Source: Candidatus Aenigmatarchaeota archaeon | GTDB taxonomy: Archaea; Aenigmatarchaeota; Aenigmatarchaeia; CG10238-14; SCSR01 | NCBI GenBank assembly: GCA_016181005.1 | Contig: JACPAE010000004.1 | Coordinates: forward strand, 9,865-73,864 | DNA: 64,000 bases | Direction: 5' to 3' | Shown here: positions 15,682-34,486 of the stretch, piece by piece | Layout: each line of letters begins with the position of its first letter | Numbering within the stretch: the stretch's first letter is position 1 | Notes under the pieces: model-generated | What the model was told of the DNA's origin: nothing | Databases searched by the model: none | What the model saw: the letters and a program-made list of their open reading frames with translations, nothing else | Position numbers and translations under genes: made by a program

Positions 15682-15784
15682 TGCCCCGGAAGGGATTTGA
15701 ACCCTCAACCTTCTCCTCAATCCTATTCATTAGGACGGAGTTGAGCTGTTACCATTTGCTCTATCCAAGTTGAGCTACCGAGGC
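15682..15784 (-). tRNA. tRNA-Arg(CCT) precursor with two micro-introns
   Basis: The minus-strand cloverleaf has acceptor GCCTCGG/CCGGGGC, D arm GCTC/GAGC, T arm GAGGG-TTCAAAT-CCCTT and discriminator A; CCA is not encoded. The 103-nt gene is 28 nt too long. Intron 1 is 15741-15755 (15 nt, between positions 27 and 28): GAGC pairs with GCTC, bulges AAA and AAC, loop TGGTAACA. Intron 2 is 15718-15730 (13 nt, canonical 37/38): GTCC pairs with GGAT, bulges TAA and TGA, beneath the CTCC/GGAG anticodon stem. Cutting after the second base of each bulge leaves a 75-nt tRNA with anticodon loop GTCCTAA. A27/A43 is mismatched. A TATA-like element lies just upstream near 15790-15815. Confidence 0.88.
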
Positions 15785-15840
15785 TCAAACTTATACTTTA
15801 AAATTGGTTTTAAATAATTAACGTCGGAAAAAAAGCCCTT

Positions 15841-34397: not shown

Positions 34398-34486
34398 GCC
34401 CTTGTAGCTCAGCCTGGATACGAATAGCCAAAAAGAGCAGCTCCCTTCTAAGGAGAAGGTCGTGGGTTCGAATCCCTCCGAGGGCA
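34398..34486 (+). tRNA. tRNA-Arg(TCT) precursor with a 14-nt D-loop intron
   Basis: Acceptor GCCCTTG/CGAGGGC, D stem GCTC/GAGC, anticodon loop CTTCTAA (TCT), T arm GTGGG-TTCGAAT-CCCTC with one T/T mismatch, discriminator A, no encoded CCA. The D loop is 24 nt rather than 10. Removing 34420-34433 (14 nt) leaves the standard loop AGCCTGGATA and a 75-nt tRNA. TGG before the site pairs with CCA, flanked by 3-nt bulges ATA and AAA around loop CGAATAG, a minimal relaxed bulge-helix-bulge; cut position is ambiguous by one A. The intron sits between positions 20a and 21, not at 37/38. Confidence 0.9.

What the first reader, a model, noticed from the sequence alone, without database searches (positions are those of the whole stretch)
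15682..15784. tRNA-Arg(CCT) with two micro-introns, one outside the anticodon loop
Seen: the gene is 103 nt; the cloverleaf needs 75. A 15-nt intron follows position 27 (GAGC/GCTC helix, bulges AAA and AAC, 8-nt loop) and a 13-nt intron sits at 37/38 (GTCC/GGAT helix, bulges TAA and TGA). Known: most archaeal tRNA introns are at 37/38 and longer; non-canonical ones occur in some Thermoproteota and DPANN. Minimum-size introns with full geometry are unusual. The 5' stem of the D arm doubles as the intron 1 helix.
Basis: partly seen in the sequence, partly recalled or inferred. Interest (0 to 1): 0.75.

Follow-up and report, generated by a model that had tools for sequence, protein, structure and literature searches.

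The report
Arginine tRNA gene with two micro-introns
A tiny uncultivated archaeon carries an arginine tRNA gene cut by two introns of only 15 and 13 bases, and this gene is typical of a genome full of such micro-introns, whose splicing enzyme appears to lack a residue thought essential for cutting.

Summary
Confirmed. On the minus strand at 15682-15784 lies a 103-nt tRNA-Arg(CCU) gene. Removing 15 nt after position 27 and 13 nt at 37/38 gives a 75-nt cloverleaf that ARAGORN calls tRNA-Arg(cct). Each insert has the 4-bp helix and two 3-nt bulges cut by archaeal splicing endonuclease (EndA). Two same-genus relatives have the gene beside the same neighbour, with one 11-nt intron or none. It is the only CCU tRNA found in the genome; AGG is the commonest arginine codon in the window.

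The gene is not exceptional here. I curated 40 tRNA genes: 28 are interrupted by 42 introns, 32 of them 11-20 nt; 12 genes have two or three. A same-genus genome has a four-intron tRNA-Arg(UCU) whose exons equal a relative's spliced gene. The ligase gene rtcB is itself split by two small introns. The genome's single EndA, like 29 compared relatives, has Ala (rarely Ser/Thr) in place of the catalytic lysine, plus a lysine-rich insert.

Verdict: new member of a known kind (multi-intron archaeal tRNA genes) in an unusual splicing system. Splicing is inferred from sequence; no RNA evidence was available.

The parts
15756..15784 (-). exon 1 of tRNA-Arg(CCU), positions 1-27 (29 nt)
   Evidence: D arm conserved in relatives
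15741..15755 (-). intron 1, 15 nt, ATGGTAACAGCTCAA, after position 27 (non-canonical)
   Evidence: absent in G003 and G004
15758..15761 (-). GAGC, D-stem 3' strand (22-25) that also forms the 5' side of the intron 1 central helix
   Evidence: sequence
15743..15746 (-). GCTC in intron 1, 3' side of its central helix
   Evidence: sequence
15731..15740 (-). exon 2, positions 28-37, with anticodon CCT
15718..15730 (-). intron 2, 13 nt, ATGAATAGGATTG, at 37/38 (canonical)
   Evidence: G003 has an 11-nt intron at the same place, G004 none
15733..15736 (-). GTCC, 5' side of the intron 2 central helix (positions 32-35)
   Evidence: sequence
15720..15723 (-). GGAT in intron 2, 3' side of its central helix
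   Evidence: sequence
15682..15717 (-). exon 3, positions 38-73
15809..15814 (-). TTTAAA, TATA-like box at -30 to -25, where tRNA genes of this genome show their A/T peak
34398..34486 (+). second split tRNA gene of the window: tRNA-Arg(UCU) with a 14-nt D-loop intron at 34420-34433

Best explanation
This is a working, single-copy tRNA-Arg(CCU) gene with two bulge-helix-bulge (BHB) introns. Seen in the sequence: both inserts have the BHB core, removing them gives a cloverleaf, the gene has a TATA-like box at the genome's usual place, and relatives have the gene with one or no intron. Inferred: EndA cuts the 103-nt precursor at four bonds (exons of 29, 10 and 36 nt; introns of 15 and 13 nt) and RtcB joins the exons. 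Intron 2 forms its motif on the anticodon stem. Intron 1 borrows D-stem strand 22-25, so its motif and the native D stem exclude each other; after excision the D stem can close. Also inferred, with less certainty (about 0.4): the lineage's EndA has traded its usual catalytic lysine for a lysine-rich loop beside the active site, which lets a single-gene enzyme accept short, relaxed motifs at many places in a tRNA. The confidence given is for the two introns and their removal, not for the loop idea.
For: Best-ranked product of an exhaustive deletion scan; ARAGORN accepts it; cloverleaf fold. G004 intronless and G003 with one 11-nt intron, same neighbour gene, same D arm and loop. 42 introns in 40 curated tRNA genes. 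G001 four-intron gene whose exons equal spliced G002. EndA gene and RtcB gene present. TATA-like box in register. AGG 296 of 677 Arg codons in window ORFs, no other CCU gene found.
Against: No RNA data. A27.A43 mismatch in the mature anticodon stem, where relatives have a C-G pair. Intron 1 motif is relaxed. The motifs alone arise in about 1% of shuffles. The only EndA found lacks the catalytic lysine, and its substitution in the Archaeoglobus enzyme abolishes activity (PMC12397907). The ligase gene is itself interrupted.
Confidence: 0.9

Rival explanations
1. Intron 1 lies elsewhere: 14 nt (AGCTCAACTTGGAT) at 8/9 are removed and a second D-arm-like hairpin, GAGC AAATGGTAACA GCTC, is kept, giving a 76-nt tRNA.
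For: Equal cloverleaf score, 3 of 4 central pairs; the Rfam model also aligns to this hairpin; tRNA-Asn of this genome does have an 8/9 intron (hand-curated).
Against: The first D arm is the one conserved in G003, G004, G014 and G020; the second resembles none of them.
Confidence: 0.03
2. Only intron 2 is removed; insert 1 stays in a 90-nt tRNA.
For: Intron 1 has poor outer and inner helices.
Against: The 90-nt form does not fold as a cloverleaf; same-genus relatives lack the insert; many other tRNAs of this genome have 12-17 nt inserts in the same region that must go.
Confidence: 0.03
3. The gene is a decaying pseudogene or an assembly error and is not used.
For: A27.A43 mismatch; metagenome assembly; AGG could be read by tRNA-Arg(UCU).
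Against: Intact acceptor, D and T arms, TATA-like box in register, the only CCU gene found, AGG the commonest Arg codon; comparable inserts in 27 other tRNA genes make a chance error unlikely.
Confidence: 0.04

Closest known systems
Multi-intron tRNA genes of Thermoproteales (Pyrobaculum calidifontis, 71 introns in 46 genes; PMC8450103)
   Same: BHB introns at canonical and other positions, several per gene; a like density per gene (0.84 on average there, 1.05 here)
   Different: Those archaea use a two-gene EndA with a crenarchaea-specific loop (PMC6379350); here a single-gene EndA without the catalytic lysine, and introns mostly 11-20 nt
ARMAN-2 (epsilon2 EndA with ARMAN-specific loop; PMC12397907) and Nanoarchaeum equitans
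   Same: Small DPANN-type archaea that process non-canonical motifs
   Different: Their EndA is three-unit or two-subunit and keeps Tyr-His-Lys; the loop sits elsewhere in the sequence
Archaeon GW2011_AR20 (CP010426.1)
   Same: Single-gene EndA and 11-15 nt tRNA introns
   Different: EndA keeps the lysine and lacks the insert; 11 of 13 parsed introns are at 37/38
Nucleomorph tRNA introns of Guillardia theta, 3-24 nt (PMC4090602)
   Same: Very short inserts at non-canonical positions, two or three per gene
   Different: Eukaryotic nuclear remnant; how they are spliced is not known

Membership tests
Archaeal BHB tRNA intron | 4-bp central helix between two 3-nt bulges | tested here: met
   Both inserts, 4 of 4 pairs each
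Archaeal BHB tRNA intron | Removal restores a cloverleaf | tested here: met
Archaeal BHB tRNA intron | Same gene without the insert in relatives | tested here: met
   G004 lacks both, G003 lacks intron 1
Archaeal BHB tRNA intron | Canonical place 37/38 | tested here: inconclusive
   Met for intron 2; intron 1 is after position 27
Archaeal BHB tRNA intron | Excised by EndA and ligated in the cell | not testable with these tools
   No RNA data; EndA and RtcB genes present
alpha4-type EndA (the splicing enzyme) | One gene of about 190 aa with N- and C-terminal EndA domains | tested here: met
   188 aa, PF02778 and PF01974; one hit in G000 and in 14 of 15 other genomes of its family, none in the incomplete G004
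alpha4-type EndA (the splicing enzyme) | Catalytic Tyr-His-Lys triad | tested here: not met
   Tyr and His present, Lys replaced by Ala
alpha4-type EndA (the splicing enzyme) | Homotetramer | not testable with these tools
   No structure predicted or solved here
EndA with a specificity loop (CSL / ASL) | Lysine-bearing extra loop next to the active site | tested here: inconclusive
   A conserved lysine-rich insert exists, but between the catalytic Tyr and His, not at the CSL/ASL site in the sequence; nearness in space was not modelled
Split or permuted tRNA | Exons transcribed apart or in swapped order | tested here: not met
   All exons contiguous and in order within 103 nt

The most novel reading that the evidence does not exclude
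In this archaeal lineage a single-gene EndA has lost the catalytic lysine and uses lysines of a new loop between the catalytic Tyr and His. This further kind of lysine loop, besides the crenarchaeal and ARMAN ones, gives it broad specificity, which let micro-introns spread to many tRNA positions, up to four per gene, and into the mRNA of the tRNA ligase RtcB itself.
Probability: 0.4. Interest if true: 0.78.

Novelty: new member of a known kind. Interest (0 to 1): 0.5.

Why it matters
The gene is a clean example that standard finders miss: ARAGORN finds no tRNA in this window, which holds two tRNA-Arg genes. The wider picture tests the idea that EndA loops and intron spread evolved together: here a single-gene enzyme of the size said to cut only canonical introns, without the lysine thought essential, sits in a genome with 23 of 42 tRNA introns off the canonical site. 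If that enzyme is active, the accepted catalytic triad is not universal.

Tried and rejected
Alternative intron 1 at 8/9 with a second D-arm-like hairpin: equal cloverleaf score, rejected by homology. Origin of intron 1 by duplication of the D arm (AGCTCAACT occurs twice): four of the nine bases are forced by pairing and A-rich bulges are common here, so dropped. AR20 could not be used as a centre for relatives. Kaneta et al. 2018 on EndA and intron co-evolution is not held. A search for the neighbouring reductase in named genomes gave two distant hits, AR20 and a Woesearchaeota MAG, at 35-38% identity, so the lineage name is tentative.

Full report
WHAT IS THERE. The reverse strand of 15682-15784 reads GCCTCGG TA GCTC AACTTGGATA GAGC AA [ATGGTAACAGCTCAA] CTCC GTCCTA [ATGAATAGGATTG] A GGAGA AGGTT GAGGG TTCAAAT CCCTT CCGGGGC A. 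I wrote a parser that removes BHB-type introns and scores the product as a cloverleaf; it returns one solution, 15 nt after position 27 and 13 nt at 37/38. An exhaustive scan of deletion pairs, ignoring motifs, gives 24 cloverleaf-compatible products; this one ranks first with 4+4 bp motifs. ARAGORN finds no tRNA in the whole window, but calls the spliced product tRNA-Arg(cct). The product's minimum-energy fold is the cloverleaf; the 90-nt form that keeps insert 1 does not fold that way.

IS IT MORE THAN CHANCE. The tRNA itself is beyond doubt: acceptor 7/7, D 4/4 and T 5/5 pairs and the conserved loop bases. For the inserts I shuffled both in place 4000 times; 45 shuffles still gave two perfect 4-bp motifs and a cloverleaf. 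So the motifs alone are modest evidence. The relatives decide. In G004 (same genus) the gene has no intron, in G003 (same genus) one 11-nt intron at 37/38. Both lie near the orthologue of the window's 15841-16815 gene and share the D arm and the loop GTCCTAA. More distant relatives have intronless versions (G014, G019, G020, G023, G030, G035) or two introns at other places (G011: 37 and about 42; G025: about 23 and 37).

FUNCTION OF THE GENE. AGG makes up 296 of 677 Arg codons in long window ORFs. Searches with the Rfam tRNA model and with T-arm patterns found no other CCU gene, in a genome estimated 92% complete. Its TTTAAA box lies at -30 to -25, where the 40 tRNA genes of the genome show an A/T peak.

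THE GENOME AROUND IT. Starting from 36 covariance-model hits and T-arm patterns I curated 40 tRNA genes: 28 with introns, 42 introns, 32 of them 11-20 nt, ten genes with two and two genes (Asp GUC, Ser UGA) with three; ARAGORN recognises all 40 spliced forms. Some intron boundaries are hand-curated and may be off by a few bases. By my count 19 are at 37/38 and 23 elsewhere. That is 1.05 introns per gene, against a mean of 0.21 in surveyed archaea and 0.84 in Thermoproteales (PMC8450103). The clearest proof that such inserts are introns comes from G001 of the same genus: its 133-nt tRNA-Arg(UCU) has four inserts of 12, 15, 13 and 18 nt, and removing them gives exactly the spliced G002 gene. Reviews give three introns as the maximum (PMC4033280, PMC8450103).

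HOW IT MOST LIKELY WORKS. Step 1, inferred: EndA cuts each bulge between its second and third base. Step 2, inferred: RtcB joins the exons. Intron 2 uses the anticodon stem as outer helix. Intron 1 pairs its GCTC with D-stem strand 22-25, so the D stem must open for cutting and can close afterwards. The genome has one EndA, of 188 aa with both domains; 14 of the 15 other genomes of its family also show exactly one. Compared with solved structures and relatives, the catalytic Tyr and His are present but the lysine of the SVRK motif is Ala: Ala in 26 and Ser or Thr in 2 of the 28 lineage sequences aligned, and Ala in two more. All nine epsilon2-type EndAs read from the same class keep the lysine. 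In the Archaeoglobus enzyme alanine at the catalytic positions abolishes cleavage (PMC12397907). The lineage sequences also share an insert, here GVKLKRGPKAAHEHTK, between Tyr and His. In crenarchaeal and ARMAN enzymes lysine loops next to the active site give broad specificity (PMC6379350, PMC12397907). AR20 makes a useful contrast: a single-gene EndA with the lysine (HSTRK) and without the insert, and 11 of 13 parsed introns at 37/38. My reading is that the insert supplies the missing lysine and the broad specificity; this is untested, and one pair of genomes is not a correlation. In some relatives the lysine-less EndA coexists with an epsilon2-type one, so a different role there cannot be excluded; in this family it is the only EndA found.

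RTCB. The ligase gene is split by two inserts. A 31-nt insert with a 4/4 central helix, 9-bp inner and 4-bp outer helix restores GFDI|NCGM; a 32-nt one with a 3/4 central helix restores MPDGH|SGYGFP. The spliced protein aligns to G001 and G003, whose genes are uninterrupted, with 87% and 86% identity and no gap at the junctions. G004 and G015 have an insert at the same first site, with a U.G to U-A change in the central helix and changed pairs in the inner stem. Archaeal mRNA introns are otherwise best known from cbf5 (PMC2738675). If real, the ligase must act on its own mRNA.

NOVELTY. The tRNA gene is a new member of a known kind. The EndA without its lysine and the rtcB introns are the less ordinary parts; I found no paper on either, but the library is partial and Kaneta et al. 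2018 could not be read.

LIMITS.

Noticed in passing
G000:C2:74457-75833 (L141, reverse strand 1567-1598 and 1688-1718), outside the window: rtcB, the gene of the tRNA ligase, is split by two BHB-like introns of 32 and 31 nt that restore MPDGH|SGYGFP and GFDI|NCGM; G001 and G003 have it uninterrupted, G004 and G015 share the first intron site with pair-preserving changes.
   Followed up: partly
L031 (G000:C5:69040-69561) and relatives L032-L061: EndA of this lineage has Ala (rarely Ser/Thr) for the catalytic Lys and a conserved lysine-rich insert between the catalytic Tyr and His; AR20 has the Lys and no insert.
   Followed up: partly
L084 (G001:C7), reverse strand 1399-1531: tRNA-Arg(UCU) with four introns (12, 15, 13, 18 nt); the spliced product is identical to the spliced G002 gene. 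Reviews give three as the maximum.
   Followed up: yes
window 34398-34486 (+): Second split tRNA gene in the window: tRNA-Arg(UCU) with a 14-nt D-loop intron; 27.5 bits with the Rfam tRNA model, just under the cut-off.
   Followed up: yes
L118 (tRNA-Asp GUC), L096 (tRNA-Ser UGA), L107 (tRNA-Asn GUU) of G000: Three introns each in Asp and Ser, including the D arm or variable region; Asn has a hand-curated 15-nt intron at 8/9 whose motif uses the acceptor strand.
   Followed up: partly
upstream of 40 tRNA genes of G000: A/T peak at -30 to -25 and A at -2 in 75% of genes, which suggests a fixed, very short leader; an RNase P RNA is nevertheless present (123.7 bits).
   Followed up: partly
rtcB in G002, G019, G026, G030: Frames of 840-968 aa with split RtcB matches look like inteins, so rtcB seems a hot spot for inserted elements in this order.
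   Followed up: no
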